Virus record (IMG/VR): IMGVR_UViG_3300045049_000234
Coordinates: 47,180 to 111,179 of that record
From: a virus
DNA length: 64,000 nucleotides
Strand: one strand, 5' to 3'
Positions within the stretch are counted from its first letter, which is position 1. The number at the start of each line of letters is the position of its first letter. The translations under genes and the position numbers were made by a program. The notes beneath the pieces are model-generated. The model saw only the letters and a program-made list of their open reading frames with translations, was not told the DNA's origin and did not search any database. Positions 1 through 59,981 of the stretch are shown one piece after another.

Positions 1-1593
1 GTCGATCGACGCCTTGGAGTAGCCCGTGGTGTCGATCCCGAACAGCGGCACCGACGCCGGGACCGCGTCGGACACCGACGTGGCGCGCGGCGCGACCAGC
101 CCGGACCGGCGCACGCCGTACCCGCCGCTGTAGTACCCGCCGTACGCGAACGCCTGGCCGTCGGTGACCACGATTACCCGGTCGTGGCCCTTGAACGTGG
201 CCTCGATGGCGCCGATGGTCTGCGTGCCGTGGCCCACCTCGCCGATGCGCTTGGTGAACCGGTCGATCTCGCGCAGCATGCTGCCGCCCAGCGCGATGTC
301 GTGCTGGAACACGCCGTCCGCGTAGCCGTACAGGCTCACTTTGCCGCCGGTGCGGTACGCCAGCGCCACGCCGATCAGCGCGCCGATGTCCACGTGCCGG
401 ATCTGCGACTTGCCAGACACCGGGGACTGCATGGAGCTGGAGGTGTCCACCAGCACCAGCGTGCGCCCGTCCAGGAGCGGGATGTTCGCCGTGGCCGCTG
501 CCAGCGCCTGCTCCAGCGCGTGACCCCACCGCAGCGACGGTGCGGCCTTGTACGCCGACAGGAACCGGTACGGGAACTGCCGAGAGCGCGCCACTTCCGC
601 CGGGTCGGCGATCTTCGCCGCCACCTGCGCCGCGACCTTGTCAGAGACCTTCGCCTCGTCGAAGTTGCGCAGGTTGCGGATCAGCGCCATGTAGCCCATC
701 GACGGGATGATCGCCTCCCACGCGGCGCGGTCCATCGGACCCTGAAGCCAACCGGCCAGGATCTCCCACGTGATGCCCGCGTCGTTCAGACGCTGCGCCC
801 CGCCGTCGGCCAGCAGGACCGCACGGCGCTCCGCCACCGGCAGCGCCATCAGATCGCGGTTCGCGCGCAGGATGCGCAGCGACTCGGGAACGTCCAGCTC
901 CGGCTCGTGCGGCTTGGACACCACGTAGTCGAACAGGTCGTGCTGCCACGGCGCCTTGATGGTCTGCGCGGAGTCGTCGCGGTCGCCCGAGTGCGTCAGG
1001 TCCAGCACGCGGCGCCACGAGAAGCCGGGGTGCGCCACGTCGCCGTACTTGATGAAATTGCGCTCGTTGCCCATGCGGATCATGGCGTCGGCGATACCGC
1101 GCTTGAGCGGCTTGGGCAACGCCATCCCGTAGCGCGACGTCCAGTACGCCAAAAGCTCGCCGGGCTCGTCCGGGCGCTGGAGCGCGTCGCGCACGACGCT
1201 GCGCGCGGAGATGGTCGGCAGCGGGTACTGCGTGCCGGTGCGGCCGGTGCCCATCTCGTCGCGGCGCGCGTGGACGTACTCCGCCGCCGCGACGACCGAC
1301 GCCGAGCGCATCAGGCCCTCGCTGCGAAGCCACTTGATGAACCGCGCGGTCCAGTCGGGGTGCTGGACGGCGCACTGACGCACCAGGTTGCGGAACCGGA
1401 CGTCGCGGTCGCCCGCCTTCTCGTAGAACGTGTCCTCGCCGACCATGTTCGTCACGGCCAGCAGGAACAGATCGGACTGCGGGGTGCGGGTCCACGCGGC
1501 GCCGCCCTCGTGGGTGGTGGTGCGCTCGTCGGTGGTCCGGATGACGCCCGGCGCAGTGGTCTGCTTGCCGAGCTGCTTGGTGAACTTCGCCAC
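1..1593 (-). CDS. rsr: Ro60/Rsr TROVE-domain RNA-binding protein (C-terminal end cut by window)
   Basis: Reading from a GTG preceded by GAGAGGAACCC, 531 residues are visible and the frame is still open at the window edge. The first ~360 residues read as a TROVE/HEAT-like ring domain. A von Willebrand A domain follows, with the MIDAS motif DTSSS near residue 383 and a second acidic motif (VVTDG) further on. Ro60 proteins are rings that bind Y RNAs and misfolded RNA ends; bacterial Rsr works with Y RNA and exoribonucleases such as PNPase. Family length is about 530-540, so little is missing. It lies 49 nt downstream of, and in the same direction as, nine structured RNA units with tRNA-like domains, the expected place for Y RNA partners. 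Family call is from motifs read by eye; function is inferred from the family and context. Confidence 0.9.
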   Translation of the reverse strand, partial: MAKFTKQLGKQTTAPGVIRTTDERTTTHEGGAAWTRTPQSDLFLLAVTNMVGEDTFYEKAGDRDVRFRNLVRQCAVQHPDWTARFIKWLRSEGLMRSASVVAAAEYVHARRDEMGTGRTGTQYPLPTISARSVVRDALQRPDEPGELLAYWTSRYGMALPKPLKRGIADAMIRMGNERNFIKYGDVAHPGFSWRRVLDLTHSGDRDDSAQTIKAPWQHDLFDYVVSKPHEPELDVPESLRILRANRDLMALPVAERRAVLLADGGAQRLNDAGITWEILAGWLQGPMDRAAWEAIIPSMGYMALIRNLRNFDEAKVSDKVAAQVAAKIADPAEVARSRQFPYRFLSAYKAAPSLRWGHALEQALAAATANIPLLDGRTLVLVDTSSSMQSPVSGKSQIRHVDIGALIGVALAYRTGGKVSLYGYADGVFQHDIALGGSMLREIDRFTKRIGEVGHGTQTIGAIEATFKGHDRVIVVTDGQAFAYGGYYSGGYGVRRSGLVAPRATSVSDAVPASVPLFGIDTTGYSKASID

Positions 1594-1642
1594 GGTCGGG
1601 TTCCTCTCTACGTGCGTGTGCTGTGCGGGAGGAACCGGCAGG

Positions 1643-1782
1643 GGTGACCCGAGATTGAAGCGACGGCGGCTGTTTTGACTGATGCTCTACCAAGTGAGCT
1701 ACCGAGGGTAAAGCCCCCCGGATTGGGATCGAACCAATAACCTTCAGTTCCGAAGTATCCGCCATCAGGGCACCGGGTCACC
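1643..1782 (-). ncRNA. Y-RNA-like tRNA-mimic unit 9 (tRNA opened in the anticodon loop)
   Basis: Outer stem GGTGACCCG/CGGGTCACC (9 bp), then GTGCC, inner helix GATGGCGG/CCGCCGTC, then TACTTC. Inside, the tRNA 3' half comes first: anticodon-stem strand ACTGA, T arm with TTCGATC, acceptor strand CCGGGGG. A 6-nt linker follows, then the 5' half: CCCTCGG, D arm, TCAGT. The halves pair correctly only if the tRNA is read as circularly permuted with its opening in the anticodon loop. TTCAATCT precedes the closing outer stem. It cannot act as a normal linear tRNA as written. Last unit before the Ro60 gene. Confidence 0.85.
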
Positions 1783-1790
1783 GGTGCTGG

Positions 1791-1921
1791 ACCTCCCGAG
1801 GTTGGGGTGTGCGGGACTAAGTTGCCTTAGACCATCTCGGCCACACGCGGCGGACCGCGTGACAGGATTCGAACCTGCGTTCGTTTGCACGAAGTAAGTT
1901 CCGCACGGGGCACCGGGAGAT
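1791..1921 (-). ncRNA. Y-RNA-like tRNA-mimic unit 8 (leucine/serine-type tRNA body)
   Basis: Outer stem ATCTCCCG/CGGGAGGT with one G-U pair, GTGCC, inner helix GTGCGG/CCGCAC, TACTTC. The domain holds a short variable-arm-like hairpin (TTCG/CGAA), a T arm with GGTTCGAATCC, acceptor CACGCGG paired with CCGCGTG through a 4-nt linker, and a D arm of the long-variable-arm tRNA type. No anticodon stem-loop can be drawn; the inner helix takes its place. CCAACCT precedes the closing stem. Confidence 0.8.
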
Positions 1922-1956
1922 GCCTTTACTGTCAGTGTTCAGTTGTCAATGGGGTC

Positions 1957-2098
1957 GCGCCCGAGGTTGAGTCGGTGATCGTTGTTCTCTGTTGTGCTGC
2001 CGTTACACCACACGCCCCAGGTGGGGGGCGCGCCGGATTCGAACCGGACCTCCGGTTCCCTAGACCGGTGAAGTAACGATCTCCTTGGCACCGGGCGC
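1957..2098 (-). ncRNA. Y-RNA-like tRNA-mimic unit 7 (proline-type anticodon arm)
   Basis: Outer stem GCGCCCG/CGGGCGC (7 bp), GTGCC, inner helix GATCGTT/AACGATC extended by GG/CC, then ACTTC. The 3' part contains a full anticodon arm CCGGT-CTAGGGA-ACCGG, whose loop is of the proline type (AGG at 34-36). A T arm with TTCGAAT and acceptor GCGCCCC follow. A 6-nt linker joins acceptor GGGGCGT and a D arm. The order is permuted, opened between D arm and anticodon arm. Confidence 0.82.
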
Positions 2099-2112
2099 GA
2101 TGTCTGTGGGCC

Positions 2113-2253
2113 GTGTCCGAGATTGAGGTCGGACGATCGTGACGTTAGGTGCTCTGGGCCACTGAGCCACAGGGGACACAGTCCCCCGCCGGGATTCGAA
2201 CCCGGGTCACCCGCTTAAGAGGCGAAGTAACGATCATCCTGGGCACCGGACAC
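2113..2253 (-). ncRNA. Y-RNA-like tRNA-mimic unit 6 (lysine-type anticodon arm)
   Basis: Outer stem GTGTCCG/CGGACAC, a different sequence from its neighbours but still fully paired. GTGCC and inner helix GGATGATCGT/ACGATCGTCC (10 bp, one G-U) follow, then TACTTC. The anticodon arm is TTCGC-CTCTTAA-GCGGG; the loop is the canonical lysine CTT loop. The T arm (CCGGG, TTCGAAT, CCCGG) and acceptor CGGGGGA come before a 5-nt linker, then acceptor TCCCCTG and D arm GCTC/GAGC. Permuted order, opened between D arm and anticodon arm. Confidence 0.87.
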
Positions 2254-2267
2254 GGCATCCGTTTAGT

Positions 2268-2412
2268 CCACCCCGAGGTTGAATCAGAGACCGGTATTCT
2301 TAAAGAAGGACTCGAACCTTCACCTCCGGCTTTTCAAAGCCAGCGTGCTGCCAATTACACCACTCGGCCATGAGTGGCCGAGGAAGTATCGGTATCAATG
2401 GCACCGGGATGG
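2268..2412 (-). ncRNA. Y-RNA-like tRNA-mimic unit 5 (glutamine-type, opened at the T-stem/acceptor junction)
   Basis: Outer stem CCATCCCG/CGGGGTGG with a G-U pair, GTGCC, inner helix GATACCG/CGGTCTC with one mismatch, TACTTC. The acceptor 3' strand TCGGCCA comes first, then a CTCA linker, acceptor 5' strand TGGCCGA, D arm, anticodon arm carrying the glutamine loop CTTTGAA, and T arm with TTCGAGT. Three extra bases after the anticodon loop enlarge it or let it re-pair into GGCTT/AAGCC. The breakpoint differs from units 6, 7 and 9. Confidence 0.82.
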
Positions 2413-2421
2413 ATGCCTGGC

Positions 2422-2533
2422 CCCTCCCGAGATTGAGGTGGCCGACGGAGAACGGGACTTGAACCCGCAGCGTTTCCTTGGAAGGGAAATTTCGAACCAT
2501 TCGAAGTAACCGTAGACCTGGGCACCGGGAGGG
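2422..2533 (-). ncRNA. Y-RNA-like tRNA-mimic unit 4 (glycine TCC tRNA in normal order)
   Basis: Outer stem CCCTCCCG/CGGGAGGG (8 bp), GTGCC, inner helix GGTCTACGG/CCGTCGGCC. Inside is a tRNA in natural order: D-like arm, anticodon arm TTTCC-CTTCCAA-GGAAA (glycine TCC loop), and T arm GCGGG-TTCAAGT-CCCGT. The acceptor stem is replaced by, or merged with, the inner helix, so the ends are not free to be charged. Confidence 0.8.
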
Positions 2534-2542
2534 AATTCTATG

Positions 2543-2621
2543 GTGTCCCCGAGATTGAAAGCGGCGGCCGGTGTGTTTCCATTTGGAGTGAAGTAACCGA
2601 TTGCCTGGGCACCGGGGACAC
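2543..2621 (-). ncRNA. Y-RNA-like unit 3 (minimal; isolated tryptophan-type anticodon stem-loop)
   Basis: Only 79 nt. Outer stem GTGTCCCCG/CGGGGACAC (9 bp), GTGCC, inner helix GGCAATCGG/CCGGCCGCC with two mismatches, TACTTC, TTTCAATCT. The insert is a single weak stem-loop with loop CTCCAAA, the canonical tryptophan CCA anticodon loop, flanked by TTCA/TGGA. There is no D arm, T arm or acceptor. Confidence 0.75.
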
Positions 2622-2627
2622 GTACGC

Positions 2628-2750
2628 GGCATTCCCGAGGTTCACGGTGGATCGACGACGGGGGTTCTCCGTCCCCACGCTCCGCGTGAGGGTTCCCCCT
2701 ATGGTGCACTGGTGGAGGAAGTATCGCCGGTCCGAGGCACCGGGAATGCC
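2628..2750 (-). ncRNA. Y-RNA-like unit 2 (branched insert without a T loop)
   Basis: Outer stem GGCATTCCCG/CGGGAATGCC (10 bp), GTGCC, inner helix GGACCGGCGA/TCGTCGATCC with one mismatch, TACTTC, GTGAACCT. The insert of about 58 nt has a GC hairpin (CACGC/GCGTG) inside a GGGGG/CCCCC helix, but no recognisable T loop or anticodon loop. Same scaffold, different cargo. Confidence 0.72.
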
Positions 2751-2774
2751 CACTGTTCAGTTATCAAGAAGCGC

Positions 2775-2854
2775 GTCCCCGAGATTAAGGGCGACGTCCG
2801 GAACGGGATTCAAATTTACAGTTTGAAGTAGCCGGTCGTCTGGGCACCGGGGAC
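2775..2854 (-). ncRNA. Y-RNA-like unit 1 (minimal; isolated tyrosine-type anticodon stem-loop)
   Basis: First unit after the promoter, 80 nt. Outer stem GTCCCCG/CGGGGAC, GTGCC, inner helix GACGACCGG/CCGGACGTC with one mismatch, TACTTC, TTAATCT. The insert is a perfect hairpin TTCAAA-CTGTAAA-TTTGAA. Its loop is the canonical tyrosine GTA anticodon loop. No other tRNA arm is present. Confidence 0.75.
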
Positions 2855-2902
2855 AAAGTCGGTGCGTTTCGGCGGGGGTTGGGTTCCCGTTTCAACACGC
2901 AT

Positions 2903-2933
2903 AGCGTAGCACATGCGTTAGACGGTCACGCAA
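2903..2933 (-). promoter_or_regulatory. Promoter for the RNA array and Ro60
   Basis: On the minus strand the -10 is TACGCT. An imperfect -35 (GTGACC, or TTGCGT slightly further out) lies upstream, with the CTAAC spacer motif common to promoters here. It sits between the HAD gene and unit 1 and faces the array. Confidence 0.6.
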
Positions 2934-2939
2934 CACCAT

Positions 2940-3458
2940 TTAGCCGCGCGCCGCGATGTCGGCGAACATGCGCACGCTGTCCACGATGTCGTCCGTCAGC
3001 CCCGTCGCCGGGTCCGCCGTGATCAGCAGCGTGGGCGCGGTGTGCGCCGTGCGCCGGTTGCCGCGCGTGAGCATGCCCATGGTGAACCCGTCGTCGATCC
3101 ACGCGAACGGCCGGATGCCCGCGTACTGCAACACGTGATCCCACTTCCATTCGGCGGTCACGTCGTACTCGGAGAACCGGCGATTCATCGGCGCCACCGG
3201 CATCGGGTCCAGCCCGATCAGCGGCGCCAGGTGGGTGTTCGCGCGGTCGTTCCACGTGGTCGCCCACACGTGTTCCACGATGTCGTCCAGCGACCGCACG
3301 CGCTTGACGTCGCCGGGGTCCAGCACGAGCGGCACCGGGCGCGGCATGCCGGGCAGGTCGATCGTGTGGCGCAGCCACTCGCCGCCGGTCACGTTCTGGA
3401 GCGGGTAGCGGTTGAACACCCCGTCCACATCCCAGAACAGCAGCGGCTTGCCGGTCAC
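2940..3458 (-). CDS. HAD-superfamily protein of the 'Swiss army knife' RNA-repair type
   Basis: 172 residues from a GTG that overlaps the upstream stop (GTGA). The HAD nucleophile motif DVDGV is at residues 10-14. The conserved stretch HVWATTWNDRAN in mid-protein and WIDD later match the HAD domain that Pfam names after Swiss-army-knife RNA-repair proteins, common in actinobacteria. HAD enzymes of this kind are predicted to remove terminal phosphates from nucleic acids. It is translationally coupled to the vWA protein and lies just upstream of the RNA array and Ro60, which supports a role in RNA end processing; that role is inference. Confidence 0.75.
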   Translation of the reverse strand: MTGKPLLFWDVDGVFNRYPLQNVTGGEWLRHTIDLPGMPRPVPLVLDPGDVKRVRSLDDIVEHVWATTWNDRANTHLAPLIGLDPMPVAPMNRRFSEYDVTAEWKWDHVLQYAGIRPFAWIDDGFTMGMLTRGNRRTAHTAPTLLITADPATGLTDDIVDSVRMFADIAARG

Positions 3459-4504
3459 CGCGCCTCGGCCGGGATGATCAGCAGCTTGTCGCCGTCGTAC
3501 ATCTTGCGGTTCACAGACGTGGACTGCACGAAGATCGTGTACTCCGGGTTGATGTCCGGGCTCACCCGCGTGTCGATGTCCGGCAGCCCCAGGATGTCCC
3601 GCGCGCCGTCGCCGACGTACACGACGCCGGTCTTCTTCTCGTGGACGGCGATGCGCTTGGTGCGCTGGATCGTGACACGGCGCTTGAGTTCGTAGAAGGC
3701 CGCGCCGATCCGGTAGTCCATGCGCAACTGATCCACAACCCAGTCACGGATCTCCGCGTCCTCGGTCACCGTGGTCAGCGTGTAGGCGCTGCCAGGCAGC
3801 GGGGTGAGCGTGGAACGTACGGTGTCCCGGTTGACGGCGTCGATGCCGGTGGAGAAGATCGCCCGGCTGCCGCGCACGCCCTGCGCCCGGTTCGCCATGA
3901 ACCGGTCGGTGGCGGCGCGGATCGTGTTGCCGACCTCCCGCACACCGTGCGCGGACGTGGTGTCCCACACGGCGATGTTGTCGGCGGCGAACCCGAACCG
4001 CTTGGCCTCGAACACGCCCATCTGGTTCGGCACCATCACGGCCACCGTCCAGTTGTCCGGCAGTGCGCGCAGCCGCGCGGACAGGTGCGCGGAGGTGTGG
4101 ATGCGGCTGCGGTTCTCCTCGCCGTCGGTGATCACGTAGACCAGGAACGCATGGTCGCCGTAGATCTCCGGCGTCTTGGCCAGATCATCCAGCGCCGTCA
4201 TGGTCGCGTCGATCAGCGCCGTGTTGCGCTCGGCGCGGTAGTGCTCCGCGATCGAAGGCAGGCGCAGCACGTCCCGATCGTAGAACACGCATTCGGCGGC
4301 CTGTTTGACGCCGGGCACGGCCTCGTTGAACACGTAGACCGTCGCCCGCGTCTCCTGGTCCATCACAGTGGACCGTTCGGCCAGGTGGGACACCATGCCA
4401 TCCGTGACGGCCACCACGTCGCGGGCGAACCGGGACATGGACAGCGAGCCGTCCAGCACGATGGCGATGTGGTTGATGTAGCCCTGTGTGGGGTGTTTGT
4501 TCAT
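3455..4504 (-). CDS. von Willebrand factor A domain protein
   Basis: 349 residues. The N-terminal ~210 residues form a vWA domain. The metal-site motif DGSLSMS is near residue 18, and VITDGEENRS near residue 130 is the second acidic element. The C-terminal part is basic and ends in a small beta-rich segment (YTIFVQSTS). The same fold forms the C-terminal half of Ro60, so two vWA proteins flank the RNA array. Start ATG follows AAAGGAACCC. Overlap with the HAD gene by 4 nt implies coupled translation. The ligand is unknown. Confidence 0.75.
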   Translation of the reverse strand: MNKHPTQGYINHIAIVLDGSLSMSRFARDVVAVTDGMVSHLAERSTVMDQETRATVYVFNEAVPGVKQAAECVFYDRDVLRLPSIAEHYRAERNTALIDATMTALDDLAKTPEIYGDHAFLVYVITDGEENRSRIHTSAHLSARLRALPDNWTVAVMVPNQMGVFEAKRFGFAADNIAVWDTTSAHGVREVGNTIRAATDRFMANRAQGVRGSRAIFSTGIDAVNRDTVRSTLTPLPGSAYTLTTVTEDAEIRDWVVDQLRMDYRIGAAFYELKRRVTIQRTKRIAVHEKKTGVVYVGDGARDILGLPDIDTRVSPDINPEYTIFVQSTSVNRKMYDGDKLLIIPAEAR

Positions 4505-43890: not shown

Positions 43891-44186
43891 ACGCGCACGA
43901 GCGGCTGTACGTGATCGCGGGAACGTACCGGGAGTACTTGGACTGGTGCGCCGATCTGCCGATCGGCCGCAACGATCCGCGCGTGCGGTGCGTGCTCGAT
44001 TCCTGGGCGTTGCAAGGCGCGCCGCGCGGTCTGTGGTACATCAAGATCGGAACATGGGAACGCTGGTCCAGCCGGGCGCACATCGATGAGATGCTGTACT
44101 GCTGCGAAGCCCGCGACGCGGACGCGGCCATGGGTCGGATGGGCTCGGAGCGGAGATCGGCTGTAAACCGGTTGCCATCGGCATAG
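43887..44186 (+). CDS. Hypothetical protein whose end overlaps a tRNA gene
   Basis: 99 residues, GTG overlapping the previous stop. The last 18 codons lie inside tRNA-Tyr, so the C terminus (MGRMGSERRSAVNRLPSA) is encoded by tRNA sequence. The first ~80 residues (YREYLDWCADLPIGRNDPRVRCVLDSW) look genuine. Either the original stop was lost or the gene tolerates the overlap. Confidence 0.6.
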   Translation: MNAHERLYVIAGTYREYLDWCADLPIGRNDPRVRCVLDSWALQGAPRGLWYIKIGTWERWSSRAHIDEMLYCCEARDADAAMGRMGSERRSAVNRLPSA

Positions 44187-44210
44187 CAGGTTCGACACCT
44201 GCCCGACCCA
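44132..44210 (+). tRNA. tRNA-Tyr(GTA)
   Basis: Acceptor GGGTCGG/CCGACCC, anticodon arm ATCGG-CTGTAAA-CCGGT, long variable arm TGCC/GGCA, T arm GCAGG-TTCGACA-CCTGC, discriminator A. No CCA is encoded. D arm is weaker. Followed by CGCGGAGGAACC, the ribosome site of the next gene. Confidence 0.85.
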
Positions 44211-44223
44211 CGCGGAGGAACCA

Positions 44224-59002: not shown

Positions 59003-59094
59003 GATGGGTCCTCCGTTCACGTGTCAGCGCCCCCGGCAAGGTCATCCGATTACCGACCGGGGGCGCCGTGATGCGCGGTTTCCGTCACGCATCG

Positions 59095-59168
59095 CACCGG
59101 CGGCAGGACTCGAACCTGCGACTCTGAGATTCGTAATCTCAAGCTCTTTCCAGCTGAGCTACGCCGGT
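59095..59168 (-). tRNA. tRNA-Arg(ACG)
   Basis: Acceptor ACCGGCG/CGCCGGT, D arm GCTC/GAGC, anticodon arm TGAGA-TTACGAA-TCTCA, T arm GCAGG-TTCGAGT-CCTGC, discriminator G. No encoded CCA. Confidence 0.93.
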
Positions 59169-59286
59169 TAGCGGCGGGATGCTTCTTCCGGACGAACCGA
59201 CGCTCACGCGAGGACCCGCCTGCAACCCGCCTGCCACACGCGGCACCGGCTTCCAGGGGCAGCCGTACTGGTGCGTTGCGTGGTCG

Positions 59287-59360
59287 TCGCCCCGAGTGGA
59301 ATTGAACCACCGGCCTTTCCCTTATCAGGGGAACGCTCTGACCAACTGAGCTACGGGGCA
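59287..59360 (-). tRNA. tRNA-Ile(GAT)
   Basis: Acceptor TGCCCCG/CGGGGCG (U-G first pair), D arm GCTC/GAGC, anticodon arm TTCCC-CTGATAA-GGGAA, T arm GGTGG-TTCAATT-CCACT. No encoded CCA. The 118 nt to tRNA-Arg hold no convincing gene. Confidence 0.93.
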
Positions 59361-59468
59361 TTGCGGGTGCGCTTTCGAAACAACGAGGTGCGCACCGCTG
59401 ACGCGGGAGGACTGCCATCCTGCCCCGCGCCCCGAGACGAGCGCTGGCAGGCGCCTGTCTCTACCTCG

Positions 59469-59540
59469 CTCCCGATCGAGGATTCGAACCTCGTATGCCG
59501 CGTCCAGAGCGCGGCGTGTTGCCGATTACACCAACCGGGA
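59469..59540 (-). tRNA. tRNA-Gln(CTG)
   Basis: Acceptor TCCCGGT/ATCGGGA, anticodon arm CCGCG-CTCTGGA-CGCGG, T arm CGAGG-TTCGAAT-CCTCG. No encoded CCA. The gap to tRNA-Ile (108 nt) shows no convincing gene. Confidence 0.9.
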
Positions 59541-59640
59541 TCGGTTGTCCTACACGTCCTGTTTCACCCACCGGCCGTTGTGGCGGACCTCCACCACCAC
59601 GTCCGGCGAACCGCCCACGGGCCAAGAGGCGGCGGTGCCC

Positions 59641-59771
59641 TAGTGGAACCGGGGGGAGTCGAACCCCGTGCGCGCGCTCGTGGCTACCCGCCACGGCCGA
59701 TCCCATGGTGGTCGGTCTTTCAGCGCACACGTGCCCGGGACGCGTCCGGGTTTGGTGCCGACCAAGCGCCG
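59641..59771 (-). other. Orphan T arm / tRNA remnant
   Basis: GGGG-TTCGACT-CCCC followed by CCGGTTCCACT has the look of a tRNA or tmRNA 3' end. GTGGC-GGGTA-GCCAC just before it could be a variable arm. No complementary 5' acceptor strand (GGAACCGG type) is found up to tRNA-Val, so it cannot fold as a complete tRNA. The next 100 nt toward tRNA-Gln may encode a 22-residue peptide from a GTG ending GRWVKQDV. Confidence 0.4.
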
Positions 59772-59844
59772 TAGGCCCACGAGGACTCGAACCTCGAACC
59801 CGCTGCTTGTAAGGCAGCCGCTCTCCCAATTGAGCTATAGGCCC
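59772..59844 (-). tRNA. tRNA-Val(TAC)
   Basis: Acceptor GGGCCTA/TGGGCCT, D arm GCTC/GAGC, anticodon arm GCTGC-CTTACAA-GCAGC, T arm CGAGG-TTCGAGT-CCTCG. No encoded CCA. Confidence 0.92.
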
Positions 59845-59908
59845 AGGTCACCGGACACAGCCATGGCCTAACGCCGGTGCCTTAGTCGTGAAGTTGTCAA
59901 ACAGTCAG

Positions 59909-59981
59909 TTGCGGAGACGGGAGTCGAACCCGCAAATGCAAGGGTTATGAGCCCTCCGGCTTACCGTTGGCCTACTCCGCG
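59909..59981 (-). tRNA. tRNA-Met(CAT), initiator-like
   Basis: Acceptor CGCGGAG/CTCCGCA with an unpaired C1-A72, anticodon arm GAGGG-CTCATAA-CCCTT with three G-C pairs next to the loop, T arm GCGGG-TTCGACT-CCCGT. Both features mark bacterial initiator tRNA. D arm GGC/GCC. No encoded CCA. Confidence 0.88.

What the first reader, a model, noticed from the sequence alone, without database searches (positions are those of the whole stretch)
1..4504. Compact RNA-processing island: Ro60, tRNA-mimic RNAs, HAD 'RNA-repair' protein, second vWA protein
In 4.5 kb on one strand lie a TROVE/vWA Ro60, its probable RNA partners, a HAD protein of the type named for RNA-repair proteins, and a stand-alone vWA protein coupled to it by a 4-nt overlap. 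Bacterial rsr is often linked to RNA ligase/cyclase (rtc) operons. A phage version with a phosphatase-like HAD suggests RNA end healing or sorting during infection.
Basis: partly seen in the sequence, partly recalled or inferred. Interest (0 to 1): 0.8.

Follow-up and report, generated by a model that had tools for sequence, protein, structure and literature searches.

The report
Nine-member Y RNA array beside Ro60
This phage carries its own Ro60 protein gene preceded by nine different small RNAs that share a Ro60-type stem, six of them topped by tRNA-shaped heads wired on in different ways and several with a real-looking anticodon arm, which makes it possible to test why bacteria and phages keep tRNA look-alikes attached to Ro60.

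Summary
The Ro60, HAD and vWA genes are real, but the heart of the finding lies between HAD and Ro60: nine consecutive Y RNA genes (1644-2855, minus strand). A covariance model built without window sequence finds all nine end to end (E 9e-24 to 3e-5). All share a closing stem and a UACUUC motif; the heads differ: U6-U9 are circularly permuted tRNA domains, U4 an unpermuted cloverleaf, U5 probably another permutation, U1-U3 not tRNA-like. Relatives in phages and Actinobacteria have one to six; nine is the largest array seen in about 119 loci. About 40% of permuted heads, in phages and bacteria alike, keep a full anticodon arm (U33 41/42, A38 41/42, 21 anticodons), unlike described YrlA (D, T, acceptor arms only). 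The acceptor is a closed hairpin with no CCA enrichment, so charging is unlikely. In related phages HAD and vWA homologues lie some 15-30 kb from Ro60, and this genome shows no RNA ligase, RtcB, kinase or PNPase domain: the repair-island reading is not supported. Most likely the RNAs are Ro60 handles that recruit tRNA-reading partners; decoys against anticodon nucleases are the best rival. New variant of a known kind.

The parts
1..1593 (-). Ro60 (TROVE/vWA) gene, GTG start at 1593; 126 nt more lie left of the window
   Evidence: solved TROVE-protein chains 9l5y and 9kop match at E 1e-23
1644..1781 (-). Y RNA U9: permuted tRNA head, T arm - closed acceptor hairpin - D arm (classic YrlA layout)
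   Evidence: Rfam YrlA 45.7 bits, E 1e-8, under gathering 69; own covariance model 84 bits; descriptor
1791..1921 (-). Y RNA U8: permuted tRNA head, T - acceptor hairpin - D arm of Leu/Ser type, shortened anticodon stem
   Evidence: covariance model 55 bits; descriptor
1956..2099 (-). Y RNA U7: permuted tRNA head; anticodon arm candidate (loop CUAGGGA) - T - acceptor hairpin - D; the minimum-energy fold does not show the anticodon arm
   Evidence: covariance model 74 bits; ARAGORN after permutation, Pro(agg); fold
2112..2254 (-). Y RNA U6: permuted tRNA head with full anticodon arm (2210-2226, loop CUCUUAA) - T - acceptor hairpin - D
   Evidence: covariance model 97 bits, E 4e-22; ARAGORN after permutation, Lys(ctt); descriptor
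2268..2412 (-). Y RNA U5: acceptor hairpin - D - anticodon arm with 8-nt loop - T, i.e. handle attached between T arm and acceptor; this fold lies 8.3 kcal/mol above the minimum, so it is probable, not certain
   Evidence: Rfam tRNA 36.7 bits over gathering 29; covariance model without filters E 1.5e-6; folds; same layout as the minimum-energy fold of L148 unit 3
2422..2533 (-). Y RNA U4: unpermuted D - anticodon arm (2473-2489, loop CUUCCAA) - T (2452-2468), with the acceptor replaced by the inner stem of the Y RNA
   Evidence: Rfam tRNA 32.2 bits over gathering 29; minimum-energy fold shows exactly this; covariance model E 1.8e-9
2544..2620 (-). Y RNA U3: short unit, no tRNA-like head
   Evidence: covariance model without filters E 1e-9
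2630..2748 (-). Y RNA U2: handle with other hairpins, no T arm found
   Evidence: covariance model without filters E 3e-5, the weakest of the nine; handle motif
2774..2855 (-). Y RNA U1: short unit, first of the array
   Evidence: covariance model E 7.5e-9
2940..3458 (-). HAD_SAK_2 phosphatase-like gene; neighbour, no conserved link to Ro60
3455..4504 (-). Stand-alone vWA gene (phrog_26613) with MIDAS-like DGSLS; neighbour, no conserved link to Ro60

Best explanation
A Ro60 RNP operon with an expanded, diversified set of Y RNAs. Shown by sequence: nine closely packed Y RNA units directly upstream of Ro60 on one strand, each closed by its own version of one conserved stem (N4-CCCGGUGCC / CAAYCUCGGG-N4) and carrying an inner stem and UACUUC; heads are short, hairpin or tRNA-shaped; the tRNA-shaped heads are closed at the acceptor, so they have the shape of tRNA without a free 3' end. 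Inferred: the array and Ro60 are transcribed together and cut in the short spacers; Ro60 binds each RNA by the common stem; each head then holds a different partner that reads tRNA shape (PNPase, as in Deinococcus, or tRNA-handling enzymes of the host), so one phage Ro60 protein makes several RNPs for RNA decay or RNA quality control during infection. Anticodon arms widen the range of tRNA-reading proteins that can be engaged compared with classic YrlA.
For: All nine units found end to end by a covariance model built from other genomes and nowhere else in the 111 kb record. In 80 actinobacterial Ro60 loci the model gives 183 matches, essentially all just upstream of Ro60, so RNA and protein go together. 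24 of 30 consensus pairs (outer stem, inner stem, T, acceptor, D) have two-sided changes. ARAGORN recognises a tRNA in 34 of 52 long units after circular permutation and in 0 of 52 shuffled ones. Spacers (median 16 nt) share an ACAACT-like motif, 49/120 against 8 in shuffles, and first units tend to have TANNNT upstream, 51/98 against 18%: fits one transcript that is processed. Literature: YrlA stem tethers Rsr, its tRNA-like head binds PNPase and is modified by DusA and TruB (PMC8394870).
Against: No expression, binding or processing data. No TANNNT was found 10-40 nt before U1 of this array itself, and no sigma-70-type promoter in the region. Partner proteins are unknown; PNPase would have to be the host's. 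U2 is weak and U5 and U7 fold ambiguously.
Confidence: 0.6

Rival explanations
1. The heads are decoys: non-chargeable tRNA copies that occupy or block host tRNA-cleaving defence enzymes (anticodon nucleases), with several anticodon loops on offer in one array.
For: Full anticodon arms with U33 and A38 in 41/42 and 21 different anticodons; Lys CUU, Pro AGG and Gly UCC loops in one array. YrlA was proposed as a competitive inhibitor of an anticodon nuclease in Salmonella (PMC7790460), and phage tRNAs are known to defeat tRNA-cleaving defences (PMC11555353).
Against: Anticodon arms are not clearly enriched in phages: 10/28 and 47/102 permuted heads in phage sets against 28/77 in bacteria (counted). 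Bacteria keep the same design. Salmonella YrlA was not cut by the nuclease (PMC7790460).
Confidence: 0.2
2. One reading: an RNA-repair island in which the HAD heals RNA ends and Ro60 sorts broken tRNAs, with the vWA protein as a partner.
For: Close packing on one strand, 4-nt overlap of HAD and vWA, HAD_SAK_2 name and intact catalytic residues; TROVE and Swiss-army-knife HAD are both listed as RNA-repair-related in jumbo phages (PMC7824862).
Against: The three genes are far apart in other phages that have them; no ligase, RtcB, kinase or PNPase domain in this genome.
Confidence: 0.07
3. The permuted heads are precursors of working tRNAs, as with the permuted tRNA genes known in some algae and archaea.
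For: Good anticodon loops and tRNA arms.
Against: Acceptor loops of 3-9 nt with no CCA enrichment (26 of 201 against 25.9 in shuffles); many heads lack an anticodon arm; the handle interrupts the core between D and anticodon arms.
Confidence: 0.03

Closest known systems
YrlA bacterial Y RNA (Rfam RF02553; Salmonella structure 6CU1)
   Same: Encoded next to Ro60; closing stem from the 5' and 3' ends; circularly permuted tRNA head with T, closed acceptor and D arms (U6-U9).
   Different: YrlA is described with D, T and acceptor arms only (PMC8394870), and the Rfam consensus has no anticodon arm. Here many heads have a full anticodon arm, one unit is an unpermuted cloverleaf, one is probably a third layout, and nine units are arrayed. 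Best window score is 45.7 bits against a gathering score of 69.
Deinococcus Rsr-Y RNA-PNPase (RYPER)
   Same: Ro60 orthologue plus tRNA-like Y RNA next to each other.
   Different: Several Y RNAs with different heads; no phage PNPase domain found.
Salmonella rsr-yrlBA-rtcBA RNA repair operon
   Same: Ro60 and more than one Y RNA in one operon.
   Different: No rtcB or RNA ligase.
Ro-like protein loci of actinobacteriophages (BRock, GiJojo, Alone3, Quantum, VanLee, Atuin)
   Same: Two to about six Y RNA units near Ro60.
   Different: Fewer units; often within large tRNA clusters; no adjacent HAD or vWA gene.
HAD_SAK_2 family (PF18143)
   Same: Over curated cut-off, catalytic D-x-D, T, K and DD motifs present.
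   Different: No RNA-repair partner in this genome.

Membership tests
YrlA / bacterial Y RNA | Encoded beside a Ro60 gene | tested here: met
   Array ends 51 nt before the Ro60 start; same in relatives
YrlA / bacterial Y RNA | Closing stem formed by the two ends, conserved in relatives | tested here: met
   Nine units with nine different but complementary outer stems; two-sided changes in relatives
YrlA / bacterial Y RNA | Permuted tRNA head with T, acceptor and D arms | tested here: met
   Met for U6-U9; not met for U1-U3 (no tRNA head), U4 (unpermuted) and U5 (other order)
YrlA / bacterial Y RNA | Reaches Rfam RF02553 gathering score | tested here: not met
   Best 45.7 bits against 69; so these are filed as Y RNAs by handle and locus, not as RF02553 members
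YrlA / bacterial Y RNA | Bound by Ro60, tethers PNPase | not testable with these tools
   Needs binding assays
tRNA | Free acceptor end able to carry CCA | tested here: not met
   U6-U9 acceptor ends joined by a short loop; CCA not enriched in such loops across 201 heads
tRNA | Anticodon arm with U33 | tested here: met
   U4 and U6 clearly, U7 possibly; 41/42 across relatives
RNA repair operon (rtc type) | RNA ligase or RtcB in the operon or genome | tested here: not met
   (record may be a fragment)
HAD_SAK_2 | Pfam cut-off and catalytic residues | tested here: met
   30.0 against 27.5 bits; motifs
Ro60 / TROVE | TROVE and vWA domains | tested here: met
   55.2 bits over 23 for TROVE; VWA_2 22.1 bits, below its cut-off of 27, at the expected place

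The most novel reading that the evidence does not exclude
Actinobacterial and phage Y RNAs display whole, non-chargeable tRNAs on a Ro60 handle that can be joined to the tRNA at any of its junctions (anticodon end, D/anticodon junction, T/acceptor junction, acceptor end), and the nine-member phage array is a panel of such tRNAs that soaks up or blocks host anticodon nucleases.
Probability: 0.15. Interest if true: 0.85.

Novelty: new variant of a known kind. Interest (0 to 1): 0.58.

Why it matters
What the tRNA mimicry of Y RNAs is for is an open question. Heads with full anticodon arms, in phages and in Actinobacteria, give testable material: the idea that Y RNAs inhibit anticodon nucleases (raised for Salmonella YrlA, which has no anticodon arm) can be tried with RNAs that do have one. 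Natural joining of one handle to a tRNA in at least two well-supported topologies, probably four, is also a rare look at permutation in RNA evolution. On the practical side, several deposited phage 'tRNA' genes are really parts of Y RNAs.

Tried and rejected
HAD in viral contigs by peptide patterns: no relative found. Solved structures for HAD and vWA by sequence: none credible. Descriptor search for unpermuted or third-layout heads in 454 distinct units: only window U5 passed; U4, L029 unit 2 and L148 unit 3 were recognised by their minimum-energy folds and ARAGORN. ARAGORN also called about 40 whole Y units as plain tRNAs starting in the 5' handle; these use the handle as a poor acceptor and D arm, and I regard them as artefacts of the true anticodon and T arms. 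A hit of the model at 59041-59158 (E 0.002) overlaps a true tRNA gene and was dropped. One finder row (L016) was an artefact with negative length. An imposed fold of U7 was set up with wrong strand matches and is not used. CCA in acceptor loops tested and not enriched. Primary papers on bacterial Y RNAs (Chen 2014, Sim and Wolin 2018, Sim 2020) are not in the library, so prior notice of anticodon arms or long arrays cannot be excluded.
Full report
The window is G000:C1:47180-111179 of a 111,179-bp virus record. On the minus strand the order is vWA (4504-3455), HAD (3458-2940), a 1.2 kb stretch without a convincing gene, then Ro60 from 1593 leftwards, ending 126 nt beyond the window.

The stretch between HAD and Ro60 holds nine units. 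Each starts with a stem strand, then GGTGCC, an inner-stem strand and TACTTC, and ends with CAATCTCGGG or CAACCTCGGG that closes the stem; all nine outer stems differ and all nine pair. The motif occurs nine times on the minus strand of 64 kb, all here. The pairwise identity of units is 39-74%, so this is not a young tandem duplication. Rfam sees parts of it: YrlA in U9 (45.7 bits, below gathering) and weakly in U6, tRNA in U4 and U5 above gathering.

Related loci come from viral contigs (L003-L032), annotated phages (L033-L042), 80 actinobacterial genomes (L043-L122) and a handle-pattern scan of viral contigs (L125 on). A simple finder located 80 units in the first two sets and 149 in bacteria, almost all next to Ro60. 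I then built a covariance model from 18 units of other genomes. Its consensus has 30 pairs, 24 with two-sided changes. It finds all nine window units over their full length (without filters: U6 9e-24, U9 1e-20, U7 5e-18, U8 2e-13, U1 2e-10, U3 1e-9, U4 2e-9, U5 1.5e-6, U2 3e-5), and eight of them are the only matches at E below 1e-3 in the whole record. In 80 bacterial loci (859 kb) it gives 183 matches, essentially all within about 1 kb upstream of Ro60, at most five per locus; in 38 phage loci at most six; a finder pass over the pattern-scan loci also gave at most six. Nine is therefore the largest array seen here.

Heads. In the first 80 units the adjacency T arm - closed acceptor hairpin - D arm is met in 23 and in none of the shuffled sets; an anticodon arm just before the T arm in 11, none in shuffles. 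After circular permutation ARAGORN accepts 34 of 52 long units and 0 of 52 shuffled ones. For an unbiased look at the anticodon arm I took 86 distinct units with T arm and acceptor hairpin and enough room, and scored only the five-pair stem: 49% have five pairs, against 13% when 5' strands are exchanged between units. The loops of those 42 were not used for selection, yet they read C32 35/42, U33 41/42, R37 39/42, A38 41/42, with 21 anticodons. They reduce to 20 distinct stems, with pair changes at 29:41, 30:40 and 31:39, so they are not all independent. Over 454 distinct units, 85 of 207 permuted heads keep the anticodon arm; phage and bacterial sets do not differ clearly. Acceptor loops are 3-9 nt and not enriched in CCA.

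Layouts. U9 has the classic YrlA order. U6 (and probably U7) has anticodon arm - T - acceptor - D, so the handle enters between D and anticodon arms. U4 is an unpermuted cloverleaf whose acceptor is the inner Y stem, and its minimum-energy fold shows this; L029 unit 2 folds the same way. U5 reads acceptor hairpin - D - anticodon - T; this fold is 8.3 kcal/mol above the minimum, but L148 unit 3 from another phage contig has this layout as its minimum-energy fold. U4- and U5-type layouts are rare (about two units each).

Transcription. Units are separated by a median of 16 nt; 49 of 120 spacers have an ACAACT-like motif (8 in shuffles), and 51 of 98 first units have TANNNT 10-40 nt upstream (18% in shuffles). 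In this window no such element lies at that distance from U1, and the sigma-70 scan found nothing.

Neighbours. HAD_SAK_2 was detected in 9 of 37 Ro60-bearing records; in Quantum, JustBecause and Frankenweenie HAD, Ro60 and vWA lie some 15-30 kb from one another; only G001 has a weak HAD match about 3 kb from Ro60. The HAD keeps D-x-D, T, K and DD. RNA ligase PF09414, RtcB, AAA_33 and RNase_PH were not found in the record; the record may be incomplete. Two named phages do have an RNA ligase gene near Ro60 (JustBecause directly upstream, Rabbitrun about 5 kb upstream), so a link of Ro60 to ligation in other phages is not excluded.

Function. The literature held here says that the YrlA stem tethers Rsr and its tRNA-like head binds PNPase (PMC8394870), that YrlA aligns to tRNA with a circular permutation (PMC11472068), and that YrlA might inhibit an anticodon nuclease although it is not cut by it (PMC7790460). 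I take the tether model as most likely because the same design is kept in bacteria and phages. The decoy model is the leading rival and is directly testable. All functional steps are inference.

Noticed in passing
L036 4650-4721, L034 4769-4843, L041 4774-4847, L042 3835-3905, L039 4745-4835: Genes annotated as tRNA-Arg, tRNA-Arg, tRNA-Ser, tRNA-Cys and tRNA-Pro in phages VanLee, GiJojo, Alone3, JustBecause and Frankenweenie lie in, or largely overlap, Y RNA units found by the covariance model, so they are probably misannotated.
   Followed up: yes
L042 4229-4981: In Streptomyces phage JustBecause an RNA ligase gene sits directly upstream of Ro60, after the Y RNA units.
   Followed up: no
window 3455-4504; L123, L124, L252, L253: The stand-alone vWA family (phrog_26613) has a conserved C-terminal part ending in FVQSTSVNRK and occurs in large phages of several hosts, including Myrna and Phabba; function unknown.
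   Followed up: partly
L037 6747-7331: In Arthrobacter phage Atuin four Y RNA units lie downstream of Ro60 interleaved with true tRNA genes.
   Followed up: no
L022, L023, L025 downstream of Ro60: In three viral contigs the Y RNA units follow Ro60 instead of preceding it.
   Followed up: no
spacers between Y RNA units, e.g. window 1922-1955 and 2749-2773: ACAACT-like motif shared by many inter-unit spacers, perhaps a processing site.
   Followed up: partly
window 59094-59981 and 44132-44211: The phage also carries six ordinary tRNA genes (Tyr, Arg, Ile, Gln, Val, Met).
   Followed up: no
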